A DNA stretch of 64,000 nt from positions 1-64,000 of the forward strand of contig JAKFWO010000033.1 of assembly GCA_021731815.1 (NCBI GenBank), written 5' to 3'. The DNA comes from Hyphomonadaceae bacterium. Lineage in GTDB: Bacteria; Pseudomonadota; Alphaproteobacteria; Caulobacterales; Aquidulcibacteraceae. The notes beneath the pieces are model-generated. The model had not been told where the DNA came from, searched no databases, and worked only from the letters and a program-made list of their open reading frames with translations. Of this stretch, positions 40,762 through 58,129 are shown piece by piece. The first letter of the stretch is position 1, and each line of letters starts with the position of its first letter. Position numbers and translations under genes: made by a program.

Positions 40762-41523
40762 CTATGCGCCCTCATTCTGGGCCGCGACGAGGCGGTGGTC
40801 CTTGACGATCCCGAGGCGCCGCGCGACTTCGGTATAGGCCTCGCCGATCATGCCGCGATCCTGGCGGAAGCGGTCCTTGTCCAGCCGGTTATTGTTGTCG
40901 AGCACGTCCCACAAGCGGCAGCTATCGGGGCTGATTTCATCGGCGAGTACCGTGCGCGCCATGTCATTTTCGTAGAGCCGCCCGTATTCGACCCTGAAAT
41001 CGACCAGCCTTATGCCCACCGCCGAGAACATGCCGTAGAGGAAATCATTCACCCGCAGAGTGAGTGCGATGATGTCATCGATCTCCTGGGTCGATGCCCA
41101 GTTGAAGGCGGTCACATGTTCTTCCGAGACGAGGGTGACATTCCCCTGCTCTGTCTTGAAATAGAATTCGACGATCGAGCGCGGCAATATCTGGCCCTCG
41201 GGCAGGCCAAGCCGCTCACAAAAGGAACCCGCGGCCACATTGCGGCACTTGATCTCGAGCGGAATGACCTCGACCTCGCGGATCAATTGCTCGCGCATAT
41301 TGATCCGGCGAATGAAATGGGTCGGCACCCCGATCGCATTCAAATTCGTCATCACGAATTCGGAAATGCGGTTATTGATGACCCCCTTGCCCTCGATGAT
41401 TTCCTGTTTCTGGGTATTCAGGGCGATCCCGTCATCCTTGAAATGCTGGATCAGCGTGCCCGGTTCGGGTCCTTCATACAGAATCTTGGCGGCACCTTCA
41501 TAAATCTTCTTGCGGCGGGACAT
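40762..41523 (-). CDS. purC: SAICAR synthetase
   Basis: The 253-residue phosphoribosylaminoimidazole-succinocarboxamide synthase of purine synthesis. It begins '[18 protein letters not shown]'; '[19 protein letters not shown]' and '[11 protein letters not shown]' (usual form LVDFKLEFG), followed by '[14 protein letters not shown]', are diagnostic. The ATG at 41523 fits the family; a longer frame is not conserved. purS/Q/L, its common neighbours, are absent. Confidence 0.96.
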
Positions 41524-41679
41524 GGCGCTACTCCAATCACCCGATTTCGCCTCGCGGCTGAATATATGCGCGTTGGCACCGGACGGTCGAATCCCGATCA
41601 TAGCCGAGCCGCGGCCCCGCTACAATGCTGCGGCGCAACCAAATGGTTAAATCCGGGACCTTTACCACGGCAATGCCGT

Positions 41680-42186
41680 TCATCCATTGCAGGCCAGAAT
41701 GCCGCCGACGGGGGTGAGCGAGCTCCAGCCTTGTTCATTGACCAATTCGATGGTACCGGCCTCGGCGAGCACCCCCGCATTGAGATTGTCCCGCACATCG
41801 AAGATGAGGTCGATCCGGAGCTTCAACCCGCCGCCCTCATAGACCGCGCGCGGGGAAAAGCCGAAAGCGGGCTCCCCCTCCTGATCGGTTTGCAGGAGAT
41901 CGATCTTCTTGCCTTCGATGCGGATGGTCGCCCGGTTGGGATTGTTGAGCGCGGCAAATACCCGACGCGGCGGCTGGGATTTCGACCACAGGACCAAAGC
42001 GCATTCGCCTTTTTCGAACTTGATCGCCGGCGCTTCCTCAAGCGGGGGCGGGGTCTTGATTCCGGCCAGCGCCGGCACCGGCGGCGGAACCGTGATCGTG
42101 CCGGCCGACCCGCCAGACCCATTCTGGCACGCTGCGGACACGAGGCAGAGCAACAGCGCCAGAAATCCGGTCGCAATCCGGACCAT
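41680..42186 (-). CDS. Lipoprotein closing the T2SS operon
   Basis: A 168-residue protein from ATG 42186 with GGAAGGA about 9 nt upstream. The signal peptide ends in lipobox SAAC; a Pro-rich linker follows, then a compact domain of about 125 residues, mostly beta. It contains 'ECALVLWSKSQPPRRVF' and ends 'VGGILACNG'; the two cysteines may form a disulfide. It lies 25 bp behind gspN on the same strand. It resembles neither the helical GspS pilotin nor AspS. A role in secretin placement or as a secretion accessory is inference from position only. Confidence 0.72.
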   Translation of the reverse strand: MVRIATGFLALLLCLVSAACQNGSGGSAGTITVPPPVPALAGIKTPPPLEEAPAIKFEKGECALVLWSKSQPPRRVFAALNNPNRATIRIEGKKIDLLQTDQEGEPAFGFSPRAVYEGGGLKLRIDLIFDVRDNLNAGVLAEAGTIELVNEQGWSSLTPVGGILACNG

Positions 42187-42211
42187 CGGATAATTCCTTC
42201 CCTGGTGATGA

Positions 42212-42994
42212 TTATTTCGGGGCATCGGGGGCTGCATTTGGTGCGGCATTCGTGGGGGCAATGATCGCATTGAAAAGCCTGCCTTCCTCAACCCGGGAAT
42301 ATCCCTCCGGTGTCTGTGTAAAACCCGCGGCACCCAGAATTGGCCCGACCACCGGATCGGCCGTCAGAACGAATGTCGTCACGCGCACTACGCCATCGCC
42401 TTGCACGCGCAGCACGGAAGTGACTGCGCCAATGTCGCTGTTCCCGCGCAAGGGAGCTTCCGCAGCACCCGAGACGCAGGCAAAATTGCCCTTGAGAACC
42501 GGCGCGCGCCAATTCCAGCTTGCCCCGAGTTTCTCGAGAATATCGGTCTCAACACCACCAGAGGCCTTGCGGCACGCCCCACGCAGAAAATCCATGGATA
42601 TATCGGCAAAGCGCAATTCCCCGTTCCGGATCGCCTGGAAATTCAGGTTCTTCACGTCGAGCCGCCCCTGGCGCAGCCGCAAGGACGCGCCCTGCGTTCC
42701 CAGTGCGACATTGCCATCGCCGGCGATATCGCCACCGGCCAGGCGAAACCCGATTTGCGGACGTCCGGACAGAAGACTGAGCGGTTGAAGGGTCATTCCC
42801 GCATCACCGAGAAACACATTGGCCAGTCGCGCATCTGTCACCCGCCCGTTCCAGATCGTGCCGCTCGCCATGCCGGCGGAAAACCCGACCCGTTCGGGTT
42901 TGGCCCAGCGCAAGGCCAGCGACAAGGGCAGAAAGGCGACCAGCGCGATGGGCAGCGCAATCAGGAAGATCAGGACAAGCAGGGTCTTTTTCAT
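42212..42994 (-). CDS. gspN: Type II secretion protein N
   Basis: A 260-residue inner-membrane protein with one N-terminal helix (about 5-28) and a periplasmic beta-rich domain typical of GspN ('RVGFSAGMASGTIWNGRVTDARL'). GspN is present in only some T2SS and has no fixed role. A Cys pair (Cys141 and Cys168 region) may form a disulfide. The tail is an Ala/Pro/Asn-rich degenerate repeat. Its ATG overlaps the gspM stop (ATGA). Confidence 0.85.
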   Translation of the reverse strand: MKKTLLVLIFLIALPIALVAFLPLSLALRWAKPERVGFSAGMASGTIWNGRVTDARLANVFLGDAGMTLQPLSLLSGRPQIGFRLAGGDIAGDGNVALGTQGASLRLRQGRLDVKNLNFQAIRNGELRFADISMDFLRGACRKASGGVETDILEKLGASWNWRAPVLKGNFACVSGAAEAPLRGNSDIGAVTSVLRVQGDGVVRVTTFVLTADPVVGPILGAAGFTQTPEGYSRVEEGRLFNAIIAPTNAAPNAAPDAPK

Positions 42995-43473
42995 GATTTT
43001 CTTTCGATCAGGCTCGCCTGAAGCGTCACCAATCCGGTCGAGGAGGGTTCCATGGTCAACCGGCGGATCTTGAGGCCATCATTCCGTTCGAGCATGGCCA
43101 ACCATTGCAATGCTGCGGCCGACTGGACATTCTCAATGGTGATCGCCGCGCCGCCATCGGCCTCCGGCTCATAGCGTGCGAGCTGCAGGGCCGCGGCCGC
43201 GGCCGATCGCGCAAGCCGGACATTGAGCGCCTCATTCTGACCGTTGGTCGCCGCCGGAACGGATCGTGACAGCGATGACACCAATTGTCGTATCTGGGTC
43301 CCGGTCTGCTGCACCATGGTCAATCGCTCGATCGCCCGGTCACGGAAGTGCATGGAGGGAAACAGCGCCAGACAGACATATCCCAAAACCAGCAAAACAA
43401 TGCCGAGCCCGCCCAGCATCACCCGCTCGCGCGGGCTGCGGGCCACCCACATCTCATGCAATGATTGCATCAT
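42991..43473 (-). CDS. gspM: Type II secretion protein M
   Basis: A 160-residue assembly-platform protein: short cytoplasmic start, one membrane helix (about 18-40), then a ferredoxin-like periplasmic domain that pairs with GspL. 'WVARSPRERVMLGGLGIVLL' opens as in other GspM proteins. It overlaps both gspL (upstream) and gspN (downstream) by 4 bp. Confidence 0.88.
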   Translation of the reverse strand: MMQSLHEMWVARSPRERVMLGGLGIVLLVLGYVCLALFPSMHFRDRAIERLTMVQQTGTQIRQLVSSLSRSVPAATNGQNEALNVRLARSAAAAALQLARYEPEADGGAAITIENVQSAAALQWLAMLERNDGLKIRRLTMEPSSTGLVTLQASLIERKS

Positions 43474-44639
43474 CGTGCGGCTCTCAGATCAAGCGCGGTG
43501 GTCAAGATGACAGTACCGGCAGTGTCCAGCCTGCCGGTCTCTCCGGGAATTGCCTCGATCCCGCGTGAAGTCAATTGCTGTTGCAGATCGGTCAGATCCT
43601 GGGCGCTGGCATGGCGCAGCCGCACGCGCAGCAGGGTGACGCTTTCGGGCGGTGCCCCCGGTGCCGCGCTTTCGAGGCTGAGGCTTTCAAGCGAAACGGA
43701 GCTCGCCCCTTCCAACACTTCGAACAGGCTCCCCGCCAGTCGCCCATAGCCGCCCGCAAGTTCGGCGCGCAATGCACCGACCCGTTCCTGGACCGCGCGC
43801 AGCGATCCCCGGGCACCGCTTTGCGCGCCGGGACCGATTCCCGCGGTCAGTTTGGCGATGGCGGATTCGGCGCGCCTTGCAGCCAGTTCCGCCCGCAATC
43901 CGGTAACGATGGGTGCCGCCAGCCCCAGAATCCCGGCCCCGATCACCAGCGCCGCCGCGAGCGCCCAGGGGCGGTCCGCATGCGTGGAGGTCCCCTTCGG
44001 CGCAAAGGGGCCCTGCAAGAGATCGACCGCGAGATCCGCACCGCCCCGCACGACCAGGCGTTCAGCTTCCCATTCATCCTCGAACACTTTCCAGTTCCGG
44101 CCTTCGAGCAAGGTGGCGGCCAGCTCCGGCTCGCAGGAAAAGGCGAGCCGGTGGCCGCGCACCGCGAGCAGCCCGCCAAAACGCACGGCAAGCACCGCAT
44201 CGGGCTGCGAAGGCTCGGGCAACAGCAGGCAATCGGGCGTGATGGCATCGGGCGTCACGCCATAGGCGGCGGCCAGCGTCAGCCATTCGCGCATGCGGTC
44301 GGAATCGACCGCCACCACCAGCCGCTCATCGCCCTCGCCACGCGCACCAAGCGCGATATGGGTGCGGTCGCGCTGACCGCCGATCTCTTCCTCCAGCATC
44401 AGGGCTGCTGCCGCGCGGGCCTGCGCCTCCGTCCGGGCGGGGATGTCGAGCCAGCGGGCCAGCACCGCCGCACCGGGCGCCACAAACACTGTGCGCTCTT
44501 CAGTCTTGGTTCCCGGGGACTTCGCGGCCGGCGCGCCATGTGGGATCACGCCGTGATCAACGACTTCACCCGCCGCGTTGATCGACAGAAAATGGGCCGG
44601 GTCGCCATGGCGTTCCGGAGCCAGCACCAAACGCACCAT
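43470..44639 (-). CDS. gspL: Type II secretion protein L
   Basis: A 389-residue platform protein linking the GspE ATPase to GspM. The cytoplasmic actin-like domain covers about 1-230, one membrane helix lies near 242-262 ('ALAAALVIGAGILGLAAPIV'), and a periplasmic ferredoxin-like domain follows. It starts 82 bp behind gspK, the only notable gap in this half of the operon; the ATG at 44639 fits. Confidence 0.88.
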   Translation of the reverse strand: MVRLVLAPERHGDPAHFLSINAAGEVVDHGVIPHGAPAAKSPGTKTEERTVFVAPGAAVLARWLDIPARTEAQARAAAALMLEEEIGGQRDRTHIALGARGEGDERLVVAVDSDRMREWLTLAAAYGVTPDAITPDCLLLPEPSQPDAVLAVRFGGLLAVRGHRLAFSCEPELAATLLEGRNWKVFEDEWEAERLVVRGGADLAVDLLQGPFAPKGTSTHADRPWALAAALVIGAGILGLAAPIVTGLRAELAARRAESAIAKLTAGIGPGAQSGARGSLRAVQERVGALRAELAGGYGRLAGSLFEVLEGASSVSLESLSLESAAPGAPPESVTLLRVRLRHASAQDLTDLQQQLTSRGIEAIPGETGRLDTAGTVILTTALDLRAAR

Positions 44640-44721: not shown

Positions 44722-45747
44722 CTATTCATCCACCGTCCAGCGCCGCGCCCGCAAGATCAGCGCCCCTTGCGGATTGCTTTCAAACAGCGCCGAAGCCGCG
44801 ATATCAACTTCTCTATAGGCGATCGTGACGTCAAAAGCGAAGAACCGGGTGACAAGGCGCGTCGTCTCGAGCGCTGCGGGGCCCGGTGCCGCCGCCGAAA
44901 GCAGGGGATTGCTCCAGAATTCCACCAGCGAGGCAAAGCCCGCCGCCGGCCGGGCGGCGATCACCTGACGCGCGGCTTCCAGCCGCGTGCGGCCCTCGGT
45001 CAGCATCACCAGCAGGGGAGCCTGCGCCTCGGTCAGGGTGTTGACATTGATCGGTGCGGCCTCGACGGTCGGCAACGCACAGACAAAAGGCCGCAATTTG
45101 CGGTAATATTCGGCGCTTACGCCTTCGATCGCCCGCATCTCGCTGGCTTCCGCAAGCAGGGTGCTCCCGGTCCGGTAGCCGGTCGCGGCGCGCAGATAGA
45201 CATCGTCCTCCGCACCGTCGCCCTCGCGCAATTGATTGGAATCGATCCAGTCGACAAGGGCATCAAAGATGCGGGTGGCGTCGCTGGATTTGATCTCGAG
45301 CACCTTGGCCAGCGCAAGGAATTGCGGTGCATAGGTCTCGCGCCGAACGAGCTGGTCCTCATCCGCCATCACCACGCTGTTGAGATTGAAGCAATTTCCG
45401 CCATCGCGCAGGGTCGCGCTGATCAGCCCGCCATCGATGGGAAAGGTCTGGGGCACGCCTTGCCATTGTGCGGAATTGGCCGTCTGAACCGGGTTGCGAC
45501 GGATGATATCGGTGATGCGCGTGCGCGCCAGCGCTTCGGCACCAAGCGCATACCAGCGCGCCTGTGCGATCAGCGCACCATTGGCCGCGCGTGCGCGCGA
45601 GAAGCGGATGTCGTCGAGAATCCCGACCGCGATGGTCGACAGGACCGCGACCAGCAACAGGACCGCCAGCAGGGCCACGCCCGTTTCACGGCCTTTTTCG
45701 CGCGCGGGCGGCGGTGGCTTTGCGGCGGGTGGCGATCCGGACCTCAT
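44722..45747 (-). CDS. gspK: Type II secretion minor pseudopilin K
   Basis: A 341-residue minor pseudopilin that caps the pseudopilus tip with I and J. The leader ends at Gly before VALLAVLLLVAVLST; as usual in GspK, glutamate is absent at position 5. The large alpha domain with 'DALVDWIDSNQ' and the acidic calcium-binding loops 'LREGDGAEDDVYL' is typical, and 'INVNTLTEAQAPLL' forms the helix-hairpin-helix part. Its ATG overlaps the gspJ stop. Confidence 0.93.
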   Translation of the reverse strand: MRSGSPPAAKPPPPAREKGRETGVALLAVLLLVAVLSTIAVGILDDIRFSRARAANGALIAQARWYALGAEALARTRITDIIRRNPVQTANSAQWQGVPQTFPIDGGLISATLRDGGNCFNLNSVVMADEDQLVRRETYAPQFLALAKVLEIKSSDATRIFDALVDWIDSNQLREGDGAEDDVYLRAATGYRTGSTLLAEASEMRAIEGVSAEYYRKLRPFVCALPTVEAAPINVNTLTEAQAPLLVMLTEGRTRLEAARQVIAARPAAGFASLVEFWSNPLLSAAAPGPAALETTRLVTRFFAFDVTIAYREVDIAASALFESNPQGALILRARRWTVDE

Positions 45748-46493
45748 GTCTGGGCCGCCGATGTAAGAAAAATCTGGCTGATGGGATCGGCAAAGCCCCG
45801 CAGCACGAAGGCCACCCTGATGGCTGGCGGCAGATTGGCGTTCGGCGTGGACTGGAAACTGCCGATCCAGCGCTCGCCGGCGCGGAATTGCACCTGCAAC
45901 GCTTCGACCTCATCGAGGAGAATTTGCGCGGGCCCCATGGGCGCGCCATCGACCATCGGCCGCGCCCGCCGTTCGAGCCGCCCGTCAATGATCGAATATT
46001 GTACGAATTGCAGCGAAGCCCGGGGGGAATCGTCGTAATTCTCCCAGCCCCGGCGCACGAACTGGAAGACCAGCCGCTCGCGCGGCGGGGCGGTGCCAAG
46101 GGTCGGCGCGACATTGCGGCGACGCACGGGGCGACCCTCGCGATCGGTCTCGGGCGGCAGAACCCGGGGCCCCGAGGGCGGGGTCGTCGACAGGCCGGGA
46201 TCGACGCCGAGAAAAGCCCCCTGCCGCGCATCGCCACGATGGTCGCGCGCGATCCGCCCCACCAATTGGGCGAAATCGGCGGCCATCAGGGCATTGGCCC
46301 GCTCGATCTGCGCAATGCGGGCGGCGCGCGCACCGGTCGCAGCCTGGGAATCCACCGCAAACCGCAGCACCGCAATCCCCGCCAGCGACAGCAAGGCGAA
46401 AATGGCCAGCGAGACCAGCATCTCCACAAGGGTGAAGCCGGCGGTGCGAATGAATCGGGATCGCGGCCCGGCGCGCGGAGATGGCGGGGTCAC
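45744..46493 (-). CDS. gspJ: Type II secretion minor pseudopilin J
   Basis: A 249-residue minor pseudopilin. The prepilin motif is 'GFTLVEMLVSLAIFALLSLA', with the conserved Glu5. The middle is longer than usual (an Arg- and Pro-rich loop around 110-145). It begins with GTG at 46493, which overlaps the gspI stop (GTGA). Confidence 0.92.
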   Translation of the reverse strand: MTPPSPRAGPRSRFIRTAGFTLVEMLVSLAIFALLSLAGIAVLRFAVDSQAATGARAARIAQIERANALMAADFAQLVGRIARDHRGDARQGAFLGVDPGLSTTPPSGPRVLPPETDREGRPVRRRNVAPTLGTAPPRERLVFQFVRRGWENYDDSPRASLQFVQYSIIDGRLERRARPMVDGAPMGPAQILLDEVEALQVQFRAGERWIGSFQSTPNANLPPAIRVAFVLRGFADPISQIFLTSAAQT

Positions 46494-46852
46494 AGGCGCT
46501 CCCGAAACAAGGTGATTTCGGCCAGCACCTGCGGGCTGTCGGCGCTGCGCACCGCGACGAGGACCCGCAGGATTTTCGGATCAGGCGTGGGGGAAACCGT
46601 GCGCACCCACACGAAGCGGACCCCGCCCTGGTTTTCTTCGCCGCCCGCGCGGGGATCGAGCCGCCCGACCACCAGCAAGGCGGCTTCGGCGGCCTGGTTC
46701 TGCGCGACGATCCGGGCCAGCACCCGTTCCTGGACAATGCCGATACTGCGGCTGTTCTGTCCCGACAGATTGAGCAGCGCCAGAGCCGCCAGCCCGAACA
46801 CTGCCAGCGCCACCAGCAATTCCAGCAAGGTGAAGCCGCAAGCGGAATCCAT
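46490..46852 (-). CDS. gspI: Type II secretion minor pseudopilin I
   Basis: A 120-residue minor pseudopilin with a very short leader (MDSACG) and 'FTLLELLVALAVFGLAALAL' with Glu5. The rest is the compact GspI domain that forms the I-J-K tip. The ATG at 46852 is chosen for the short leader; longer frames overlap gspH. It lies 49 bp behind gspH. Confidence 0.9.
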   Translation of the reverse strand: MDSACGFTLLELLVALAVFGLAALALLNLSGQNSRSIGIVQERVLARIVAQNQAAEAALLVVGRLDPRAGGEENQGGVRFVWVRTVSPTPDPKILRVLVAVRSADSPQVLAEITLFRERL

Positions 46853-46901: not shown

Positions 46902-47375
46902 TCAGGAAGGATCGAGCGCATGGATCGATGCCTTTCCCGATGCGTCGAGATCAATGGCAAGCAAGGTTCCTCCGCGCGCGAGCACGAGATAGGCAGGCGA
47001 GGTCTGGCCGGTATTGTCGAACACCACCGACACCACTCCTTCTTTGCCGACGCGGGCCTCAACATCCGGCGCAAACAGCCCGCGCGGAAATCCGACCCCT
47101 GCCAGCGATTGCCAGGCGCCGGGGCGACGGATCTCGAAGGAATAGCCATTGCGATCCACGCGCACGGCAATCGCCCGATTGCCCAGAACGGCGGCTTCTT
47201 GCGCACGCTGAAAGGCGCGGTGAAGCTTTGCTGCTTCGTCGCGGGCATCGGCCGGACGCAATCCGCCGGTCGACAGCGCCACCGCGCCCGCGAGCAGGCC
47301 GATCAGCGTGATCACCACCAAAAGCTCGACAAGGGTGAAGCCCTGTTGTCCGACCCGTGTGCCCGGCTGGCGCAT
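46902..47375 (-). CDS. gspH: Type II secretion minor pseudopilin H
   Basis: A 157-residue pseudopilin with leader MRQPGTRVGQQG and 'FTLVELLVVITLIGLLAGAV'. The globular domain has the GspH strand pattern ('RAIAVRVDRNGYSFEIRR'). It starts 10 bp behind gspG. Longer upstream frames overlap gspG and lack a prepilin leader, so 47375 is preferred. Confidence 0.9.
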   Translation of the reverse strand: MRQPGTRVGQQGFTLVELLVVITLIGLLAGAVALSTGGLRPADARDEAAKLHRAFQRAQEAAVLGNRAIAVRVDRNGYSFEIRRPGAWQSLAGVGFPRGLFAPDVEARVGKEGVVSVVFDNTGQTSPAYLVLARGGTLLAIDLDASGKASIHALDPS

Positions 47376-47385
47376 CGATGCGGTC

Positions 47386-47850
47386 CTAGCCCTGCCAATT
47401 GCCGATATCGGCATTGGCACCCTCGCCGCCCGTCTGCCCATCGGCCCCGAAGGAGAAAACGTCATAGAGTCCGCGCGCCCCGGGCTGGAGATATTGATAG
47501 GGATTGCCCCAGGGGTCATTGGGCAGACGCCGTATGTACCCACCTTCGCGATAGAATTCGGGCCGGCGGAGCGAGGCGGGCCGCTCGGTCAGCGCCTTCA
47601 GCCCTTCATCCTTCGTGGGAAAGACGAAATTGTCGATCTTGTAGGATTCGATGGCCTGTTCGAGCGTCGCAATATCGGCGCGGGCTTTTTCGAGCTGCGC
47701 ACGTCCCTGGGCGGGCAGCACATTGATCGCCACCACCGTCGCCAGCAGGCCGAGAATGACCACCACGACCAACAATTCGACCAAAGTAAAACCACTTTCG
47801 GCCGGATTTCTCCGGGCCGCGCGGGGGGTGAGCGTCAGGGTTCCGTTCAT
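47386..47850 (-). CDS. gspG: Type II secretion major pseudopilin G
   Basis: The 154-residue main subunit of the pseudopilus. The leader is cut before 'FTLVELLVVVVILGLLATVV'; 'LRRPEFYREGGYIRRLPNDPWGNPY' (family form YL..LP.DPWG.PY) and the calcium loop 'FSFGADGQTGGEGANADIGNW' (begins FSFGADGQTGGEG) are intact. The ATG at 47850 gives an 18-residue leader. Cleavage needs GspO, which is not in this operon. Confidence 0.95.
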   Translation of the reverse strand: MNGTLTLTPRAARRNPAESGFTLVELLVVVVILGLLATVVAINVLPAQGRAQLEKARADIATLEQAIESYKIDNFVFPTKDEGLKALTERPASLRRPEFYREGGYIRRLPNDPWGNPYQYLQPGARGLYDVFSFGADGQTGGEGANADIGNWQG

Positions 47851-47915
47851 ATCTCTGGCCTTTCCCAAATCTTTGCCGGTGGACCGGATCGTGCCTCTTT
47901 CCACGCGGCGCGCAT

Positions 47916-49133
47916 TCAGCGCAGCACCGCCGTATTGATCTGCAGGATCGGCAGCAGGACTGCGAGCACGATCGCCGCCACCACGAGCCCCATCACCACG
48001 ATGATCACTGGCTCCAGCAGGCTCAGCGCCACCGCCGTAAACGTATTGAATTCGCGTTCGAGATATTCGGCCGCCCGCTCGAGCATGAGATCGAGCCGGC
48101 CGCTATTCTCGCCGCTTGCCGCCATATAGATCAAAATCGCGGGAAAAACCTCTGTCCTGCGCATGGCGGCCGACAGGGATCCCCCCTCACGGATGGAAAT
48201 CGCCACATTTTCAACCGCCGCCCGCAGGACCCGGTTCTGGACGGTGCGCGCGGCAATGGTCAGCCCCTCGAGCAGGGGCAATCCGCTCGACACCATGGTC
48301 GCGAGCGTCCGCGACAGGAGAGCGGCGTTGAGATCGCGCAGCAATTTGCCGATCAGCGGCAGGGTCAGAACCCGGCGGTCGAAACGGGTCCGAAATCCCT
48401 CATCCCGCAAGGCGCGCGCGAATATTATTCCGCCGATGACCAGGGCCAAAAGAACCATCCAGCCAAATTGCTGAACCAGATTGGAAATCACGATGACGAT
48501 CCGCGTCAACAAGGGCAGGCTCTGGCCAAGCCCCTCGAATTGCTCGACGATTTTGGGCACGACAAAGCCCATCAGGGCGGCCACCACCAGAATGGCCGTC
48601 ACGCTCAGCATCGCCGGATAGACAAGCGCCGAGACGACTTTGCCCGAAATCTCCTGCTGGCGTTCCTGCAAATCGGCGAGGCGCTCGAGAATGCCCGGCA
48701 ATGCGCCCGAGCTTTCGCCCGCCGCCACCATGGCCCGGTAAAGGGGCGGAAAGCTGCGCGCCTCGCGCCCCATGGCATCGGACAGGCGGAAGCCCTCCAG
48801 CACCGCCCCATGCACCCGAAACAGCACTTCGCGCACGCGTTTCTGGTCGGCCTGGGAGGCAATGGTGCGCAGGGCTTCCTCGAGCGGCGTGACCGAGATC
48901 AGCGTCGCCAATTGGCGCGTCACCAACGTCAATTCCTTGCCCGACAAACGGCCGGCCGCCATCTTTCCGCCGCCCGCACGGGATTTCTGGCCAAGCGCAG
49001 GGGCGATCTTCACCGGCGTCAAAGCGCGTCTGGCGAGTTCCTGACGCGCCTCGCGCTCGGTCCCGGCCGCCAATGCGCCTTTCTTTGTCCGCCCGCGAAT
49101 ATCCATCGCGACATAGTCGAATTCGGGCATCAT
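47916..49133 (-). CDS. gspF: Type II secretion inner-membrane protein F
   Basis: A 405-residue platform protein with two homologous cytoplasmic helical domains (about 70-190 and 272-390) and three membrane helices. 'EALRTIASQADQKRVREVLF' and 'GESSGALPGILERLADLQE' are in the first domain, and 'SGENSGRLDLMLERAAEYLE' in the second. GspF couples GspE to pseudopilus growth. It sits 54 bp behind gspE. Confidence 0.95.
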   Translation of the reverse strand: MMPEFDYVAMDIRGRTKKGALAAGTEREARQELARRALTPVKIAPALGQKSRAGGGKMAAGRLSGKELTLVTRQLATLISVTPLEEALRTIASQADQKRVREVLFRVHGAVLEGFRLSDAMGREARSFPPLYRAMVAAGESSGALPGILERLADLQERQQEISGKVVSALVYPAMLSVTAILVVAALMGFVVPKIVEQFEGLGQSLPLLTRIVIVISNLVQQFGWMVLLALVIGGIIFARALRDEGFRTRFDRRVLTLPLIGKLLRDLNAALLSRTLATMVSSGLPLLEGLTIAARTVQNRVLRAAVENVAISIREGGSLSAAMRRTEVFPAILIYMAASGENSGRLDLMLERAAEYLEREFNTFTAVALSLLEPVIIVVMGLVVAAIVLAVLLPILQINTAVLR

Positions 49134-49187: not shown

Positions 49188-50681
49188 TCACACATTGGCC
49201 GCGGTTTCCGCTTCCTGGCGCGTCACACGGAAGGCTTCCTCGACCGTGGTGATCCCCTCCGCGACATAGGCCCGCGCCGCCGCCGCGAGATTGGGGCCGA
49301 CCGCCAGCGCACTGGCCGCAATCAGCGCTTCATCGGCATTGTCGGCGATCATTTTCCGGATCTTTTCATCCACCCGCACCGCTTCATAGACCCCGAGCCG
49401 GCCGAGATAGCCCGTATTTCCGCATTCGGCGCAGCCTTTGGCGCGATAAATGGTGGTGCCCGGCGCGAGGCCGACCGAGCGGGCCGCGGCTTCGTCCGCT
49501 TTCTCCGCCTGACGGCAATGGGGACACAGCCGCCGCACCAGGCGCTGGGCCATGATCAATCGCAAGGTCGAAGCCAGCAGAAAGGGCTCGACCCCCATAT
49601 CGCGCAGCCGCGTGATCGCGCCGGGCGCATCATTGGTATGGACGGTCGACAGCACGAGATGTCCGGTCAGGCTGGCCTGAACCGCGATCCGCGCGGTTTC
49701 CACGTCACGGATTTCGCCCACCATCACCACATCCGGATCCTGGCGCAGCACTGCACGCAGGCCGGCGGCAAAGGTCATGCCGACCTTGGTATTGACCTGG
49801 GTCTGACCGACCCCGTCAATCGCATATTCGACCGGATCCTCGATGGTGAGGATATTGCGCGTCTGGTCATTGAGCGCCGAAAGCCCGGCATAGAGCGTCG
49901 TGGTCTTGCCCGAGCCGGTCGGTCCGGTCACGAGGATGATTCCATTGGGCTCGTTCAGCGCCGCGCGAAACAAAGCCAGCACGCCCGGAGGCATGCCCAA
50001 TTGCTCCATCGCAAGATTGGCCTGTTCGCGGTCGAGGATCCGCATCACCACCCGTTCGCCGGCCCGCGCCGGCAGGGTCGAGACCCGGACATCGAGCGTG
50101 CGCCCGCCCAGAGCCACCGAGATGCGTCCGTCCTGGGGGATCCGCTTTTCGGCGATGTCGAGCCGCGCCATCACTTTTACCCGCGAGACGAGCAGAGGCG
50201 TCAGGCGTTGGGGCAGGCGCAGCACTTCCTTGAGCACGCCATCCACCCGCATGCGGATGACAAGGCCGCTCTCAAATGGCTCGATGTGAATGTCGGAAGC
50301 CCCGCGCCGCACGGAATCGGCAAGCACCGCATTGATCAGCCGAATGATCGGCGCATCGTCCTGGGTGTCGAGCAGGTCGGCCGCCGCGGGCAAATCCTCG
50401 ACAAGGCTGTTGAGGTCGCCGGCTTTTTCGAGGCTTTCGGCACCGGTCGCCCCGACAAGGCCCTCGCCGCCATAGAGTTCCTGCAATTTCCGGTCAAAGG
50501 CCGAGGCTGAAATCCGCTCCACCGCCAGCGGTTTTCCGGCAACCCGACGCACTTCTGCAAGCCCCGCGGGCTCCGCCCCCTCGCGCATCGCGACATGTGC
50601 GATTTCGTCCACCGAAAGGATGACGATGCCCCGCGATTTCGCGAATCCATAAGCCAGAACGGGCGTTGAAGGCGAGGCCAT
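49188..50681 (-). CDS. gspE: Type II secretion ATPase E
   Basis: A 497-residue hexameric ATPase driving pseudopilus assembly. Walker A GPTGSGKTTTLY lies near residue 255-266, the Asp box is 'DIHIEPFESG', Walker B 'VVMVGEIRDVETA', and a zinc-binding four-cysteine domain contains 'CPHC' and 'CAEC' (about 395-440). The N-terminal domain that binds GspL is present but short. Confidence 0.96.
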   Translation of the reverse strand: MASPSTPVLAYGFAKSRGIVILSVDEIAHVAMREGAEPAGLAEVRRVAGKPLAVERISASAFDRKLQELYGGEGLVGATGAESLEKAGDLNSLVEDLPAAADLLDTQDDAPIIRLINAVLADSVRRGASDIHIEPFESGLVIRMRVDGVLKEVLRLPQRLTPLLVSRVKVMARLDIAEKRIPQDGRISVALGGRTLDVRVSTLPARAGERVVMRILDREQANLAMEQLGMPPGVLALFRAALNEPNGIILVTGPTGSGKTTTLYAGLSALNDQTRNILTIEDPVEYAIDGVGQTQVNTKVGMTFAAGLRAVLRQDPDVVMVGEIRDVETARIAVQASLTGHLVLSTVHTNDAPGAITRLRDMGVEPFLLASTLRLIMAQRLVRRLCPHCRQAEKADEAAARSVGLAPGTTIYRAKGCAECGNTGYLGRLGVYEAVRVDEKIRKMIADNADEALIAASALAVGPNLAAAARAYVAEGITTVEEAFRVTRQEAETAANV

Positions 50682-50708: not shown

Positions 50709-53207
50709 TCATTCCTCAGGGCCAAAAGCAGGCGGCACCGGCACGACACCGGCACGGATCTCGCGCGCCTGCGAAGGATAGTCTACCCGGAGCCGGGTTG
50801 AAAGCCCGACCGGCGGCGAAAACGCCGCAGGCATCGGCCGGAGGTTGTCGGCTTCGCGCACGGATCCGGCGGAGGTCCAGGAAGCAAAGCCCGAAACCGC
50901 AGCGTCAAAGCCCTCGGAATCGAAACCCGCCGGAATCTGGACCGGGCGGGCGCCGGGCGCGGGCAACAATGCCGGCGCGTCCCGCCGGGCGGCCGATTTT
51001 TCTCCGCGTGGCGGGGCCCCGGCATTCGGGAGAGCGGGATTTGGGGGAGCGGGATTCGCGGCAGGCGCTGCACCGGCCGGCGGGGGGACCGGCAACGCTC
51101 CGTCAAGCGGCGATGTCGGCGGCAATGGCTGGGGGTTGATCCGGCGCACCGGACCTTCTTCACCCGGAGGAATCGTCCCGAGATAATCGCGAACCACTTC
51201 CTCGATCGGGCTGACGCCCGTATCGCCGCGGCTGACCTGGGCATCGCGAATGGTGCGGTAGCGGGGTGCCGTGACTTTCTGGGCGTCCTCGCGGCTGCGG
51301 ATGATGCGCGGACGCAGAAAGATCATCAGATTGGTCTGATCCCGCGATTTGATATTGTTACGGAACAGATTTCCCAGAAAAGGAATGTCGCCAAGGATCG
51401 GCACCCGTTCCTCGGTCCGGGTCTGTGACTGGCTGAGCAACCCGCCCAGCACCACGATGTCACCATCATCGGCGAGGATCGTCGTTTCCAGTTCGCGGGT
51501 ATTGAACACGAGTTCCGGAATGGCGGGATCGGCCACGCCCTCGACGGTCGAGACCTCCTGGCGGATGCGCAGGGTGATCGCCCCACCGGCATTGATCTGG
51601 GGCCGCACGGCGAGCTGGATGCCGACATCGCGCCGCTCGATCGTGCGGAAGGGATTGGTATTGTCGGCCCCCAGCGCTTCCCCGGTCGACACCGGCACTT
51701 CCTGGCCGACAAGGAAGGTCGCTTCCTCATTGTCGAGCGCCAGGATCGACGGGGTCGACAGGATATTGGATGCGGCGTCATTCTTCACCGCATTGATGAT
51801 GACACCGAAAATGGCATTGCTGTTGATCTGCCCGCCAAAGCCCGCCAGCGAACCGAACGGCCCGAGCAGCGAAGAGATCGCCGTCGCCCGCAATTGGTCG
51901 ACCGTTTCGCTGTCCAATGCGTCCGTATTGAGCAATGCACCGGTCAAGGCCAGAATATTGGGCGCGTTGTTGGAAAAATTGCTCGAAGCGAAGGGCACAC
52001 CGCTCGAGCCATTTCCGCCCACCAGAAATTGCACGCCCAATTGACGGGCGACATTGTCGGAGACCTCGACCACGATCGCCTCGACCAGCACCTGGCTGCG
52101 GCGGACATCCAATTGACGGATGACCTCGGCCAGGGTCTTCTGGGTTTCGGTATCGGCGCTGATCACCAGTGCATTGGCGTCGGCATAGCGCGCGATCCGG
52201 GCCCGCCCGATCGCGCCGCTGATCGATCCGCCCTCGCCCCCGCCATTGGAGGCTGCAACAGGCGCACCGGCACCACCGGCGGGAATATTGCTCTGGCCCG
52301 GGCGGCGGCCGGCGGGGCCGCTATCGGCCGGACCAAAGGGCGAGGCCTGGCCGGTCAGTTCCTGCAACACCGGCAGCAATTGCTCGGCATCGGCATGCTG
52401 GAGGCGGATCACCCTGATGTCGGAATTGGATTCCGCGCGATTGTCGAGATCGGCGATCATTTCCGCATAACGGCGCACGGCATCGGGCTCGCCGCGCAAA
52501 ATGATGGTGTTGGAGCTTTCGACCGGCACGATCGAAATGGCCCCGCCGCGCGCGCCCGCGGCATTGTCGTCGCCACCGCTGCTGCCAAAGATCTGGCGCA
52601 CCGCTTCAGCGATTTCGCGCGCCTGGCTGTTGACCAGCGCAACGGTTTTCAGCTCGGACTGGTCGCGATCGATCTGGGCAACGATCCCACGCAGGCGCTT
52701 GAGATTATCCGCGTAATCGGCCACCACCACGGTATTCGAGCGGCGATTGGCGATGATCTGGCCCTGGCGGGACAAAAACGGCCGCAGCGTTTCGATGACG
52801 GAAGCGCTGTCCTGATTGGAAAAGCGGAACACTTCGGTGACATAACGCGTCGCCACGCCGGCGGTGCCCGGAAGCTGGGACAGGCCTTCCTCGAGCGTCA
52901 CCACCAGCGACCCCGATGGCCCCGGAACCGCCACCAGCCCATTGGCGCGCAGGGTGGCGAGGAAGATCTCGAACATCTCCGAATCATTGAGTGCACGATC
53001 GGAGAAAACGGTGACCGACCCCTTGACCCGCGGATCGACGATCACCGTCCGCCCGGTCTGGCGCGCAACATCGGCGATGAAGGCGCGGATATCGGCGTCC
53101 TGGGCGGTCAGCACCTGTTGCTGGGCATAGAGGGCCGGGCCGGGAGCGAGCAATGCGCCCAGCGCGCTGAGCACAAACAGACGCGAAGCCTTGTTGGGTG
53201 ATTTCAT
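50709..53207 (-). CDS. gspD: Type II secretion secretin D
   Basis: An 832-residue outer-membrane secretin. Signal peptide about 1-28, N0 and N1-N3 domains to about residue 370, then the secretin barrel ('VPLLGDIPFLGNLF'-type motif, here VPILGDIPFLGNLF, and 'LMIFLRPRII'). After the barrel comes an unusual tail of about 170 residues: a Pro/Ala/Asn-rich stretch with a 15-bp DNA repeat (51032-51061), then a conserved-looking end. The tail may be a docking site for a pilotin or the cell wall. A 340-bp gap separates it from gspC. Confidence 0.95.
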   Translation of the reverse strand: MKSPNKASRLFVLSALGALLAPGPALYAQQQVLTAQDADIRAFIADVARQTGRTVIVDPRVKGSVTVFSDRALNDSEMFEIFLATLRANGLVAVPGPSGSLVVTLEEGLSQLPGTAGVATRYVTEVFRFSNQDSASVIETLRPFLSRQGQIIANRRSNTVVVADYADNLKRLRGIVAQIDRDQSELKTVALVNSQAREIAEAVRQIFGSSGGDDNAAGARGGAISIVPVESSNTIILRGEPDAVRRYAEMIADLDNRAESNSDIRVIRLQHADAEQLLPVLQELTGQASPFGPADSGPAGRRPGQSNIPAGGAGAPVAASNGGGEGGSISGAIGRARIARYADANALVISADTETQKTLAEVIRQLDVRRSQVLVEAIVVEVSDNVARQLGVQFLVGGNGSSGVPFASSNFSNNAPNILALTGALLNTDALDSETVDQLRATAISSLLGPFGSLAGFGGQINSNAIFGVIINAVKNDAASNILSTPSILALDNEEATFLVGQEVPVSTGEALGADNTNPFRTIERRDVGIQLAVRPQINAGGAITLRIRQEVSTVEGVADPAIPELVFNTRELETTILADDGDIVVLGGLLSQSQTRTEERVPILGDIPFLGNLFRNNIKSRDQTNLMIFLRPRIIRSREDAQKVTAPRYRTIRDAQVSRGDTGVSPIEEVVRDYLGTIPPGEEGPVRRINPQPLPPTSPLDGALPVPPPAGAAPAANPAPPNPALPNAGAPPRGEKSAARRDAPALLPAPGARPVQIPAGFDSEGFDAAVSGFASWTSAGSVREADNLRPMPAAFSPPVGLSTRLRVDYPSQAREIRAGVVPVPPAFGPEE

Positions 53208-53547: not shown

Positions 53548-54435
53548 CTAACGACCTTTTAGAGCGGCACCCTTCACCCTGACGGTCCTGACGGCTCCCC
53601 CGCGCTCGAAGCGCAGCGTGATTTCCCCGCCTTGCGCCAGAATTCCCGGCAATTCCTCGATAGGCTCGGCGCTCGACAGCGGCGCGCCATTCAGCTCGGT
53701 CAGGATGTCGCCGGCCTTGAGGCCGATCTTTTCCACTTCCGGGGCGGCACCCGCGGTTTCGATGCGATAGCCGGTGACGGCATTGCCGACCCGCCGCGGA
53801 ATGAGGCTCGCTTCCGTCAGAAAGCGGGCAAAATTGGCCTCCACCGCAGTGCCGGATGGCGGCGCGGGATTGGCCTCCGCAACCGGAACCGCCGGTGCCC
53901 TCGCGCCCTGAACCGGCCCCGCCCCGAACGCATTGCCCGCCTGCGGCGCGGCCGCGAGGGCCGATGCGGTATTGCGGGGTGGAAAGCCAAGCTTGAGGCG
54001 CGCGCCGCCGCGATCGAGAATCACATGGTCGGCAAAGACTTCGCGTAACACCAGGCCGGGAGCCGGGCTTTCCCCGACCCGAAAGGCGATCTGGGGACCA
54101 TTATTGGCAGAGATGATGGCCGTTCCCTGTTCGGGACGCCCACCTCCGCGCAGCCCATAAAGACGCAGGCCGAGCGATTCCGCCGACAGGGTCTGGGCAG
54201 TCGCAAAGGCCTGGGCGCGATAAAACGGATCGTAACGTTGCAGGACCGCGAAATCCGGCTGCGGGGTGAGCAACGCCGCCGCAGCCGGCGGGGATCCCAC
54301 CGGCCCGAGCGGCGCAAGGCCGGCCCAGACGAGCGACGCGATCACCCCGGCCAAGGCCGCTGCGCCAATTCCCTCAACAAGAGAAAATGCCGTGATTCCA
54401 CGATCGGAAAAAAATGCACCGGGCTGTAACCGCAA
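53548..54435 (-). CDS. gspC: Type II secretion protein C
   Basis: A 295-residue inner-membrane protein that links the platform to the secretin. One membrane helix (about 20-45), a Pro-rich linker, the HR domain ('LGLRLYGLRGGGRPEQGTAI', binds GspD N0) and a C-terminal PDZ domain ('IGLKAGDILTELNGAPLSS'). The apparent start is TTG at 54435 with AAGGGA upstream; no ATG fits before the membrane helix. It is the first gene of the operon. Confidence 0.9.
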   Translation of the reverse strand: MRLQPGAFFSDRGITAFSLVEGIGAAALAGVIASLVWAGLAPLGPVGSPPAAAALLTPQPDFAVLQRYDPFYRAQAFATAQTLSAESLGLRLYGLRGGGRPEQGTAIISANNGPQIAFRVGESPAPGLVLREVFADHVILDRGGARLKLGFPPRNTASALAAAPQAGNAFGAGPVQGARAPAVPVAEANPAPPSGTAVEANFARFLTEASLIPRRVGNAVTGYRIETAGAAPEVEKIGLKAGDILTELNGAPLSSAEPIEELPGILAQGGEITLRFERGGAVRTVRVKGAALKGR

Positions 54436-56620: not shown

Positions 56621-58129
56621 ATGCAAAAACCAGAGGGAACACGCATGGGTCGGCTGGGTCTGATCGGGATGGTGGCGGTGGTTTTGCTGCCGACTCTGGC
56701 GGCTGCGCAAGGCAGTGCCCAGGCCGGAGGCAGTGCCCAGGCCGGAGGCAGCGCCCCGGCCGGAGGCAGCGAACGTCTGGCCATCACGATCTATAATGAA
56801 AATCGCGCACTGGTCGAGGACACGCGCCGGATCGACCTCAAAAATGGTCGCCAAAGGGTGGAATTTCCCAATGTCTCGGCGCGCATTGAATCGGAAACCG
56901 TGGTCCTGACCGGCCGCGCTTTCGGCATTGTCGAGCAGAATTTCGATTTCGACCTCCTCACCCCCTCGAAAATGATGGAAAAGGCGGTCGGATCAACCGT
57001 AAAACTGGTGCGGACCAATCCCGCCACCGGCAAGGAATTGATCGAAAGTGCCGAAATCCTGTCCGTGGTCGAAGGCGTGGTGCTGCGGATCGGCGACCGG
57101 ATCGAAGTGCTGCGCGACGACGGATTGCCGGTGCGGGTGTTGTTCGACCGCATTCCCGAAAATCTGCGTGCGCGACCGACCTTGTCGGTGACGCTGGATT
57201 CGACAGAAGCGGGGGCGCGCCCGCTGACCTTGCGTTATCTGACGGGTGGATTGTCCTGGGCGGCCGATTACGTGGCATTGTTCGACGAAAAGGCCGGCAA
57301 GCTCGACCTCCAGGGCTGGGTGACGCTGACCAATCAGTCGGGCGCGTCCTATCGGAACGCACTGACCCAATTGGTGGCCGGCAAAGTGGGCGAGGAAAGC
57401 AATGTGGTCGAGGAAAGCAGGCCGTTATGGTGGAATAATTGGCGTCGCGGGAGCAATCGCAAAATCGCCGGCGTAAAGGAAGCGGGAACCGGCGGCGAAC
57501 CCGAAGGCACCGAATTTCAGGATTACAGGCTCTATACCCTGCCCGAAGCCACCAATATTGCCGAAAACCAGACCAAGCAGGTCAGCCTGATCGATGCCAA
57601 GGGGGCCGGGGCCGAGAAGATCTACCGGATCGAGCGCGCCAATTTCCAGAATGACAACAATCCCCAAAGCGCCAGTGTCAAGATCGGCTTCACCAATTCG
57701 AAAACCGCCGGGCTCGGCGTGTCTTTGCCTGCGGGCGTGGTTCGTTTTTACGCCAGTGACAAGGATGGCAGGGCGCAATTCATCGGCGAGAACCGGATCG
57801 GACACACGCCGCAGGGCTCGGATGTGGAACTCGAAATCGGGGCGGCCTTTGATGTGACGGTCCAGAGCGCGGTGGTCAGCCAGGAATCGATCACCGAAGG
57901 CGTGAGCCGGACCTCGATGCGCTATGTGTTTCGCAATGCCCGGGGCGAGGCCGCCAATGTGCAGCTCATCCAGACGGGATTGAACGGCGCGCGTGAATTT
58001 GAAGCCGCCAGCATCAAGCCGGAAAGAATCGACGCCTACACCGAAATGTTCAAGGTTTCCGTGCCGGCGCGTGGCGAGACCGTGCTGAGTTTTCAGGTGA
58101 AAGAAGGCCGCCCGCGGAAGGGCAAGTGA
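56621..58129 (+). CDS. Exported DUF4139 protein 1
   Basis: A 502-residue protein. A signal peptide (about 1-29, ending AAAQ) is followed by three six-residue repeats (GSAQAG/GSAPAG), encoded by 18-bp DNA units. The rest is the DUF4139 fold: an N-terminal part that starts 'LAITIYNENRALVED' and the core 'LTLRYLTGGLSWAADYVALF', which recurs in the neighbouring gene. No catalytic motif is known. GGGAG precedes the ATG. It forms a pair with the next gene (GTGA overlap), so both are made together in the envelope. Confidence 0.85.
   Translation: MQKPEGTRMGRLGLIGMVAVVLLPTLAAAQGSAQAGGSAQAGGSAPAGGSERLAITIYNENRALVEDTRRIDLKNGRQRVEFPNVSARIESETVVLTGRAFGIVEQNFDFDLLTPSKMMEKAVGSTVKLVRTNPATGKELIESAEILSVVEGVVLRIGDRIEVLRDDGLPVRVLFDRIPENLRARPTLSVTLDSTEAGARPLTLRYLTGGLSWAADYVALFDEKAGKLDLQGWVTLTNQSGASYRNALTQLVAGKVGEESNVVEESRPLWWNNWRRGSNRKIAGVKEAGTGGEPEGTEFQDYRLYTLPEATNIAENQTKQVSLIDAKGAGAEKIYRIERANFQNDNNPQSASVKIGFTNSKTAGLGVSLPAGVVRFYASDKDGRAQFIGENRIGHTPQGSDVELEIGAAFDVTVQSAVVSQESITEGVSRTSMRYVFRNARGEAANVQLIQTGLNGAREFEAASIKPERIDAYTEMFKVSVPARGETVLSFQVKEGRPRKGK
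56711..56764 (+). repeat. 18-bp in-frame tandem repeat, three units
   Basis: GGCAGTGCCCAGGCCGGA at 56711 and 56729, and a two-base variant at 56747. They encode a Gly/Ala/Gln-rich linker directly behind the signal peptide of the first DUF4139 protein. Confidence 0.92.

What the first reader, a model, noticed from the sequence alone, without database searches (positions are those of the whole stretch)
41680..42186. Unrecognised lipoprotein at the end of the T2SS operon
The gene has its own good ribosome binding site 25 bp behind gspN. The protein has a lipobox, a Pro-rich tether and a beta-rich domain with a likely disulfide, unlike known pilotins. The secretin has an extra C-terminal tail of about 170 residues that needs a partner. 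It may be a new type of pilotin or secretin lipoprotein.
Basis: inference. Interest (0 to 1): 0.55.

Follow-up and report, generated by a model that had tools for sequence, protein, structure and literature searches.

The report
New accessory protein of type II secretion
A small envelope protein that matches no known family sits at the end of a bacterial protein-export operon; its relatives are always found with that export machine, so it is very probably an unrecognised part of it, although what it does there is untested.

Summary
The gene is real: 41680-42186 (-), 168 aa, 25 bp behind gspN, with its own ribosome-binding site. It matches no Pfam, NCBIfam or PDB sequence family. I call it LipX.

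[quoted passage not shown] It occurs once in each of 165 of 299 genomes of the window's order, all with T2SS genes. In 119 of 123 placed pairs it directly follows gspN. In nine genomes with a split T2SS it stays with gspC-gspD-gspN, away from gspE-M.

AlphaFold predicts a confident eight-stranded beta-barrel with two cysteines invariant in 76 of 76 sequences. This fold differs from those of the two known T2SS pilotin families.

The pilotin reading is only partly supported. The long secretin tail is peculiar to the window and a few relatives and does not track LipX. The secretin S-domain looks similar with and without LipX. The lipid anchor is usual (96 of 110) but absent in 12 members from four families.

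Best reading: a new outer-membrane-side T2SS accessory protein that helps the GspC/GspD(/GspN) complex assemble or stay stable. A GspN-linked lipoprotein-handling role is the main rival. No function has been tested.

The parts
41680..42186 (-). lipX (name used here): 168-aa predicted outer-membrane lipoprotein, last gene of the T2SS operon
   Evidence: ORF; conserved family and synteny
42195..42202 (-). ribosome-binding site GGGAAGGA, about nine bases before the ATG
   Evidence: sequence
42127..42186 (-). signal peptide, residues 1-19, and lipobox Cys20
   Evidence: sequence; lipobox in 96 of 110 relatives
42016..42126 (-). Gly/Ser- then Pro-rich tether, residues 21-57
   Evidence: sequence; mostly lower pLDDT
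41683..42015 (-). eight-stranded beta-barrel domain, residues 58-168
   Evidence: AlphaFold2, (domain alone: pLDDT 93, pTM 0.85)
42001..42003 (-). Cys62, first strand, invariant
   Evidence: 76 of 76 sequences
41689..41691 (-). Cys166, last strand, invariant; probable disulfide with Cys62 closing the barrel (inferred)
   Evidence: 76 of 76 sequences
42212..42994 (-). gspN (PF01203)
   Evidence: E 9.1e-17, over cut-off
42991..43473 (-). gspM (PF04612)
43470..44639 (-). gspL (TIGR01709)
44722..45747 (-). gspK (NF037980)
45744..46493 (-). gspJ (TIGR01711)
46490..46852 (-). gspI (start inferred)
   Evidence: ORF and position; not scanned against a library
46902..47543 (-). gspH (TIGR01708, below cut-off; start uncertain)
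47386..47904 (-). gspG (TIGR01710)
47916..49133 (-). gspF (TIGR02120)
49188..50681 (-). gspE (TIGR02533)
50709..53207 (-). gspD secretin (TIGR02517)
50712..51269 (-). GspD residues 647-832: S-domain-like part plus a long Pro/Ala-rich tail, lineage-specific
53548..54435 (-). gspC (PF11356, with a weak C-terminal PDZ match)

Best explanation
LipX is a dedicated accessory component of the T2SS of one alphaproteobacterial order (Caulobacterales-like, Hyphomonas relatives) and a few neighbours. [quoted passage not shown] There a flexible Pro-rich tether holds a small disulfide-closed eight-stranded beta-barrel in the periplasm. The barrel most likely binds the outer-membrane/periplasmic half of the machine (GspD with GspC, near GspN) and helps the secretin assemble or stay stable, doing work like a pilotin's without belonging to either known pilotin family. 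Shown by computation: gene, signal, fold prediction, invariant cysteines, exclusive linkage to the T2SS, grouping with gspC-D-N where the operon is split. Inferred: sorting to the outer membrane, the disulfide, the partner and the function.
For: Exclusive T2SS linkage: 165 of 299 genomes carry LipX, one match each; 159 have a strong GspK and the other 6 have gsp genes beside LipX. Of 56 genome-contig loci, 53 have gsp genes beside LipX, 2 start at a contig end and 1 is a spurious partial match. Position: 119 of 123 placed pairs lie directly downstream of gspN on the same strand. Natural split: in genera g24 and g39, 9 of 10 genomes have a compact C-D-N-LipX operon with E-M elsewhere, matching the division into outer-membrane complex versus assembly platform and endopilus (PMC10128026, passages). 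LipX persists after gspM in 8 loci without an adjacent gspN, so GspN is not its only partner. No PulS/OutS or AspS model matches the window's genome. A confident barrel with two invariant Cys and conserved hydrophobic residues on both faces of strands 1 and 2 suits a binding module.
Against: Twelve of 110 family members lack a lipobox and 2 are ambiguous, so an anchor-dependent mechanism is not universal. S-domains look alike with and without LipX. The pilotin signature Hyd-X-Ala-Phe (PMC6532946, passages) is absent from the window's GspD and present in 8 of 71 distinct LipX+ tails against 0 of 15 LipX- tails. Forty of the 199 T2SS+ genomes lack a LipX match, so it is dispensable for a T2SS as such. 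One excision of the E-M block would leave C-D-N-LipX together by default, and g24 and g39 may be one event. Distance-correlation tests did not single out a partner.
Confidence: 0.45

Rival explanations
1. LipX works with GspN in moving lipoprotein cargo to the cell surface, for example as a periplasmic hand-off chaperone whose barrel holds acyl chains or the cargo's N-terminus.
For: GspN is needed for T2SS export of lipoproteins in A. baumannii, and a further soluble factor is suggested there (PMC12802150: abstract, sections 5 and 13, part 1 of section 10). LipX directly follows gspN in 119 of 123 placed pairs. Among 199 T2SS+ genomes LipX and GspN associate: 143 both, 16 LipX only, 22 GspN only, 18 neither, Fisher p about 2e-6 without correction for shared ancestry. 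Barrel folds in the comparison lists include lipid and ligand binders.
Against: LipX remains without an adjacent gspN in 8 loci, and GspN remains without a LipX match in 22 T2SS+ genomes. A lipid-holding cavity was not shown; the inward pattern looks like an ordinary packed hydrophobic core.
Confidence: 0.25
2. LipX is itself a T2SS cargo, a surface or secreted lipoprotein encoded beside its exporter.
For: The window's residues after Cys20 (QNGSGGS) are Gly/Ser-rich, like the GspN-dependent sorting motif of A. baumannii (PMC12802150). In Caulobacter the unrelated lipoprotein ElpS is encoded beside the T2SS (PMC2996285, abstract and passages).
Against: By eye only about 3 of 96 lipobox members have such a Gly/Ser-rich start. 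One copy per genome at a fixed place in the operon in several families, and its place in the split C-D-N-LipX operon, suit a machine part better.
Confidence: 0.12
3. LipX locally inhibits or guides peptidoglycan enzymes so the machine can cross the wall; its small barrel works like MliC/ACP/PhiA-type lysozyme inhibitors.
For: Small bacterial barrels of this kind, ACP (5my7, Z 6.7, rmsd 3.5, 84 aligned) and PhiA (7dpy, Z 6.4, rmsd 2.9, 76 aligned), are in the list. Their role as lysozyme inhibitors is recalled.
Against: These Z-scores are within what common arrangements give, unrelated barrels rank higher, and no PDB sequence match was found.
Confidence: 0.1
4. A hitchhiking lipoprotein with no role in secretion.
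For: Forty of 199 T2SS+ genomes lack a LipX match.
Against: No LipX genome without gsp genes among 299 (and loci read); linkage kept through operon splitting and gspN loss.
Confidence: 0.04

Closest known systems
PulS/OutS pilotins (Pfam PF09691)
   Same: Small lipoprotein that goes with a T2SS
   Different: No LipX scanned matches PF09691; LipX is predicted all-beta, PulS/OutS a four-helix bundle (PMC3542185, passages); the lipid anchor is not universal in LipX; the window's GspD lacks the Hyd-X-Ala-Phe signature
AspS/GspS-beta pilotins (Pfam PF16549)
   Same: Lipoprotein, can lie in the T2SS operon, a conserved disulfide
   Different: AspS has five strands flanked by four helices (PMC3542185, passages); LipX is a predicted eight-stranded barrel with no match to the model
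GspN (PF01203)
   Same: Accessory T2SS gene, adjacent and usually co-occurring
   Different: GspN is an AsmA-like protein (PMC12802150, abstract); LipX is a separate, unrelated protein and each occurs without the other
ElpS of Caulobacter crescentus
   Same: Lipoprotein encoded beside a Caulobacterales T2SS
   Different: ElpS is about 50 kDa, upstream of gspC, made under phosphate starvation and released (PMC2996285); LipX is 168 aa and last in the operon
MliC/PhiA/ACP small barrels
   Same: Small barrel-type bacterial envelope proteins
   Different: No sequence relationship found; only middling structural scores

Membership tests
PulS/OutS pilotin family (PF09691) | Sequence match to the family model | tested here: not met
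   No Pfam family for the window protein at E<=5, and PF09691 not among those matched by any of 29 members at E<=1
PulS/OutS pilotin family (PF09691) | Four-helix bundle | tested here: not met
   Predicted all-beta, eight strands, pLDDT 93
AspS/GspS-beta pilotin family (PF16549) | Sequence match to the family model | tested here: not met
   the model also finds nothing in the whole genome
AspS/GspS-beta pilotin family (PF16549) | Five-stranded sheet flanked by four helices | tested here: not met
   No helix of four or more residues in the domain; AspS fold from PMC3542185 passages
T2SS pilotin (functional class) | Outer-membrane lipoprotein | tested here: inconclusive
   Lipobox in the window protein and in 96 of 110 relatives, none in 12, ambiguous in 2; location not testable
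T2SS pilotin (functional class) | Partner secretin carries Hyd-X-Ala-Phe in its S-domain | tested here: not met
   Absent from the window's GspD; 8 of 71 distinct LipX+ tails and 0 of 15 LipX- tails
T2SS pilotin (functional class) | Needed for secretin assembly or targeting; binds the S-domain | not testable with these tools
   Needs a mutant and binding assays
T2SS accessory component (broad) | Genetic linkage and co-occurrence with gsp genes | tested here: met
GspN-dependent T2SS lipoprotein cargo | GGG or ND(N/D), or Gly/Ser-rich residues, right after the lipobox Cys | tested here: inconclusive
   Window protein Gly/Ser-rich (QNGSGGS), but by eye about 3 of 96 lipobox relatives; rule derived in A. 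baumannii
MliC/PhiA/ACP lysozyme-inhibitor barrels | Shared fold and sequence signature | tested here: inconclusive
   Z 6.4-6.7 among many unrelated barrels; no PDB sequence match

The most novel reading that the evidence does not exclude
LipX is the first member of a third, structurally unrelated class of T2SS secretin-assembly factor: a disulfide-closed beta-barrel acting on the GspC-GspD-GspN outer-membrane module of Alphaproteobacteria, which in several lineages has given up its lipid anchor and so works by a route other than lipoprotein piloting.
Probability: 0.3. Interest if true: 0.7.

Novelty: new variant of a known kind. Interest (0 to 1): 0.5.

Why it matters
I found no pilotin for alphaproteobacterial T2SSs in the listings and passages I saw, although the system is common there (PMC10128026, passages). 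LipX is a conserved, T2SS-exclusive gene with a predicted fold and natural variants: with and without anchor, with and without gspN, and in a split operon. That makes the question of how these secretins reach and stay in the outer membrane, and what GspN works with, directly testable in culturable Hyphomonas-type laboratory strains.

Tried and rejected
Secretin tail as LipX's partner: rejected. Tails after the RP.I anchor are as short in LipX+ loci (median 62, range 47-208, 72 loci) as in LipX- loci (median 64.5, 57-73, 16 loci). The window's 202 is matched in length only by some members of its own family (L162, L163; L164 is intermediate).

GspD turned lipidated where LipX lost its anchor: by eye, no lipobox-type replacement was seen in the GspD starts printed for anchorless loci.

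DUF6491 (PF20101): matched by 3 of 29 members at E up to 1. The one match that I placed, L041, E 0.015, covers only residues 3-31, the signal region; dropped.

GspN-LipX natural fusion in G211 (L044): both lie in one open frame without a stop between. A signal-peptide-like segment with lipobox sits at the junction, so internal initiation or loss of the gspN stop is likelier than a working fusion. One genome only; not used as evidence.

Distance-correlation test on 21 loci: partial r 0.30 with GspD, 0.29 with GspF, 0.35 with GspK, 0.02 with GspN, -0.04 with GspC. It does not point to one partner.

Fold comparisons: Foldseek gave no hit at E<=0.001 in PDB or BFVD. VIA-align best Z 9.3 (6d0t, de novo barrel; rmsd 2.5, 83 aligned), then 7a0t 8.9, 2ich (AttH) 8.4, NspA 8.2, rhizavidin 8.2: a common barrel arrangement, no family assignment. 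Pilotin folds were not among the rows shown.

Hand corrections: two automatic signal calls (L106, L168) were moved by eye to 'ambiguous', three (L086, L102, L114) to lipobox; the seven printed as 'nocore' all have a lipobox; L150 is cut off and left out. This gives 96 / 12 / 2 of 110.

Weak hits dropped: the last four rows (E 7.7e-4 to 0.0056), L105, the second G256 row. G292's LipX hit (E 6.9e-5) has no gsp genes around it (L180) and is counted as the exception of 10. Two early notes of mine miscount: GspN lies beside LipX in 13 of the 14 strong family loci, and 53, not 55, of 56 loci have gsp genes beside LipX.

Full report
1. The observation. The gene at 41680-42186 (-) is a complete ORF of 168 codons with an ATG start, a GGGAAGGA ribosome-binding site and a 25-bp gap to gspN. 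It encodes a signal peptide with a lipobox Cys20, a Gly/Ser- then Pro-rich linker, and a C-terminal domain. Upstream on the same strand lie gspC, D, E, F, G, H, I, J, K, L, M and N; all but gspI were scanned against profile libraries. Downstream on the same strand is a gene that I recognise as purC (recalled; ORF). No terminator-like site was found in 41400-43100. The protein matches no Pfam or NCBIfam model and no PDB sequence, and profiles of 29 and 76 relatives find nothing in the PDB either.

2. Is it a T2SS gene? In the window's family, 18 of 60 genomes gave matches at E<=0.01, 15 of them strong, the window included. In 13 of the 14 other strong loci GspN is found beside it by tblastn. 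In the order, 165 of 299 genomes have LipX, each with one match, and 174 have GspN: 149 have both, 16 LipX only, 25 GspN only, 109 neither. These counts are not corrected for shared ancestry. Of 123 placed LipX rows whose genome had a placed GspN row, 119 lie directly downstream on the same strand, with gaps between profile matches of 15-319 bases. Of the four exceptions, G139 and G258 have a GspN beside LipX when read directly (L155, L109), G234 is broken over contigs, and G067 has GspN on another contig. GspK over its cut-off occurs in 200 of 299; 159 of 165 LipX genomes are among the 199 that I transcribed, and the other six (G010, G026, G052, G053, G245, G289) have gsp genes next to LipX.

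3. Wider distribution. A genome-contig scan gave 56 loci. In 53, gsp genes lie beside LipX; in 2 LipX lies at a contig start; 1 (L105) is a spurious partial match. Titles include Hyphomonas, Henriciella, Ponticaulis, Robiginitomaculum, Kordiimonas, Rhodothalassium and one Caulobacter. Across the class, only 4 of 385 genomes matched LipX at E<=0.01 and 4 of 385 had GspN over cut-off; three are the same genomes (G000, G060, G447). The family is therefore narrow: mainly one order plus a few neighbours.

4. Two natural experiments. (a) In eight loci (L146-L149, L151, L153, L154, L156) LipX follows gspM with no gspN between, so LipX can outlive an adjacent gspN. In 22 of 199 T2SS+ genomes GspN is present without a LipX match, and in 18 neither is present. 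In 19 loci fetched around such GspN genes (L126-L144) no ORF matched the LipX profile, and the ORFs downstream looked unrelated. One of the 22, G082, does have a weak LipX, in a C-D-N-LipX locus. (b) In genera g24 and g39, 10 genomes have GspK far from LipX. In 9 of these 10 the LipX locus reads gspC-gspD-gspN-lipX, and in all 10 gspE to gspL or gspM lie elsewhere. The tenth, G292, has only a weak LipX hit without gsp genes around. The split follows the accepted division of the machine into an outer-membrane complex joined by GspC, and the assembly platform with endopilus (PMC10128026, passages). A single excision of the E-M block would give this arrangement by default, so it supports but does not prove a link to C-D-N.

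5. Anatomy. AlphaFold2 gives a confident domain: residues 58-168 with pLDDT mostly above 90, and the domain alone with 76 sequences reaches pLDDT 93.2 and pTM 0.85, with eight strands and no helix of four or more residues. The strand order and the barrel matches fit an up-and-down barrel. Only Cys62 and Cys166 are invariant in 76 of 76 sequences. They sit at the start of strand 1 and the end of strand 8, which are neighbours in such a barrel, so a disulfide closing it is likely (inferred; coordinates were not inspected). Trp67, Gly138, Gly153, Pro159 and Gly162 are nearly invariant. Most strands alternate hydrophobic and polar residues, as in a soluble barrel, but strand 1 (G-L-F-L-W) and strand 2 are hydrophobic on both faces across the family. 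The outer face may bind a partner or be covered by the protein's own N-terminal arm.

6. Fold relatives. No Foldseek match at E<=0.001. VIA-align lists many eight-stranded barrels: a de novo barrel (Z 9.3), lipocalin-like domains (kievitone hydratase 8.9, AttH 8.4), avidins (to 8.2), NspA (8.2), and the small bacterial proteins ACP (6.7) and PhiA (6.4). This is a general resemblance and assigns no function.

7. Anchor. Of 110 distinct LipX sequences with a readable start, 96 have a lipobox, 12 have none and 2 are ambiguous (corrected by eye as told under Tried and rejected). The 12 without come from four families: f1 (6), f3 including the named Caulobacter (3), f2 genus g35 (2) and f4 (1), by the handles. 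That the named Caulobacter belongs with f3 is inferred. A lipid-anchored state is thus usual, and loss appears in separate lineages. A mechanism that needs the Lol pathway cannot be universal for the family.

8. The secretin. The window's GspD has 186 residues after the TIGR02517 match. Most of this is a Pro/Ala-rich tail found at such length only in the window and a few family members (L162, L163). LipX+ and LipX- secretins have equally short ends with a similar 'sLD.fv..vl' segment; L115 (LipX+) and L130 (LipX-), both genus g29, are nearly identical there. The reported signature of pilotin-dependent secretins, Hyd-X-Ala-Phe in the S-domain (PMC6532946, passages), is absent from the window's GspD and present in 8 of 71 distinct LipX+ tails and 0 of 15 LipX- tails. 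PulS/OutS and AspS models find nothing in the window's genome, so no known pilotin was detected, though such families diverge fast.

9. Most likely working. I commit to an accessory protein on the outer-membrane side of the T2SS, most likely helping GspD (with GspC) assemble or stay stable. The main rival is a role with GspN in lipoprotein export. That has become concrete since GspN was shown to be needed for surface lipoproteins in A. baumannii, with a possible additional chaperone discussed (PMC12802150: abstract, sections 5 and 13, part 1 of section 10). LipX could be that kind of factor in this order, but it outlives an adjacent gspN in several loci. That LipX is itself cargo is less likely, though the window's copy happens to begin with a Gly/Ser-rich stretch like the A. 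baumannii sorting motif.

10. Print. I found no description of this family in seven searches of the paper library, of which I saw listings and, for seven papers, abstracts or passages; subscription papers and preprints are not held. The Caulobacter crescentus T2SS paper reports gspO, in the opposite orientation, downstream of gspN, and describes the unrelated ElpS upstream (PMC2996285, abstract and passages).

11. Verdict. Observation confirmed; interpretation partly supported. A new accessory family of a known machine: interesting to secretion specialists and easy to test, with the function open.

Noticed in passing
L173-L179, L181, L182 with L183-L192: In two genera the T2SS is split into a C-D-N-LipX operon and an E-M operon; in one single-contig genome (G145) they lie about 0.55 Mb apart.
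   Followed up: yes
L044 and L161 (G211:C1:1328500-1347500): gspN and lipX share one open frame without a stop between them in a single-contig genome; possibly a fusion, more likely a lost stop with internal start.
   Followed up: partly
window 50712-51269: GspD carries a long Pro/Ala-rich C-terminal tail after the S-domain-like part, matched in length only by a few relatives and with little likeness in sequence.
   Followed up: partly
L169 and L170: Several T2SS genes (among D, E, G, K, L, N) appear in frame-broken pieces in genomes G052 and G053, from assembly errors or decay.
   Followed up: no
L058, L059, L069: Contigs titled Candidatus Sulfopaludibacter or Acidobacteria carry LipX 50-53% identical to the Hyphomonadaceae-type query within the same kind of operon; probably mislabelled or contaminated metagenome bins.
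   Followed up: no
window 56621-58129: Predicted exported protein with a short Gly/Ser/Ala/Gln repeat (GGSAQA/GGSAPA) just after its signal peptide.
   Followed up: no
L124 (G121:C38:14900-31900): Several kilobases separate gspE from gspF in an otherwise ordered T2SS cluster, suggesting an insertion.
   Followed up: no
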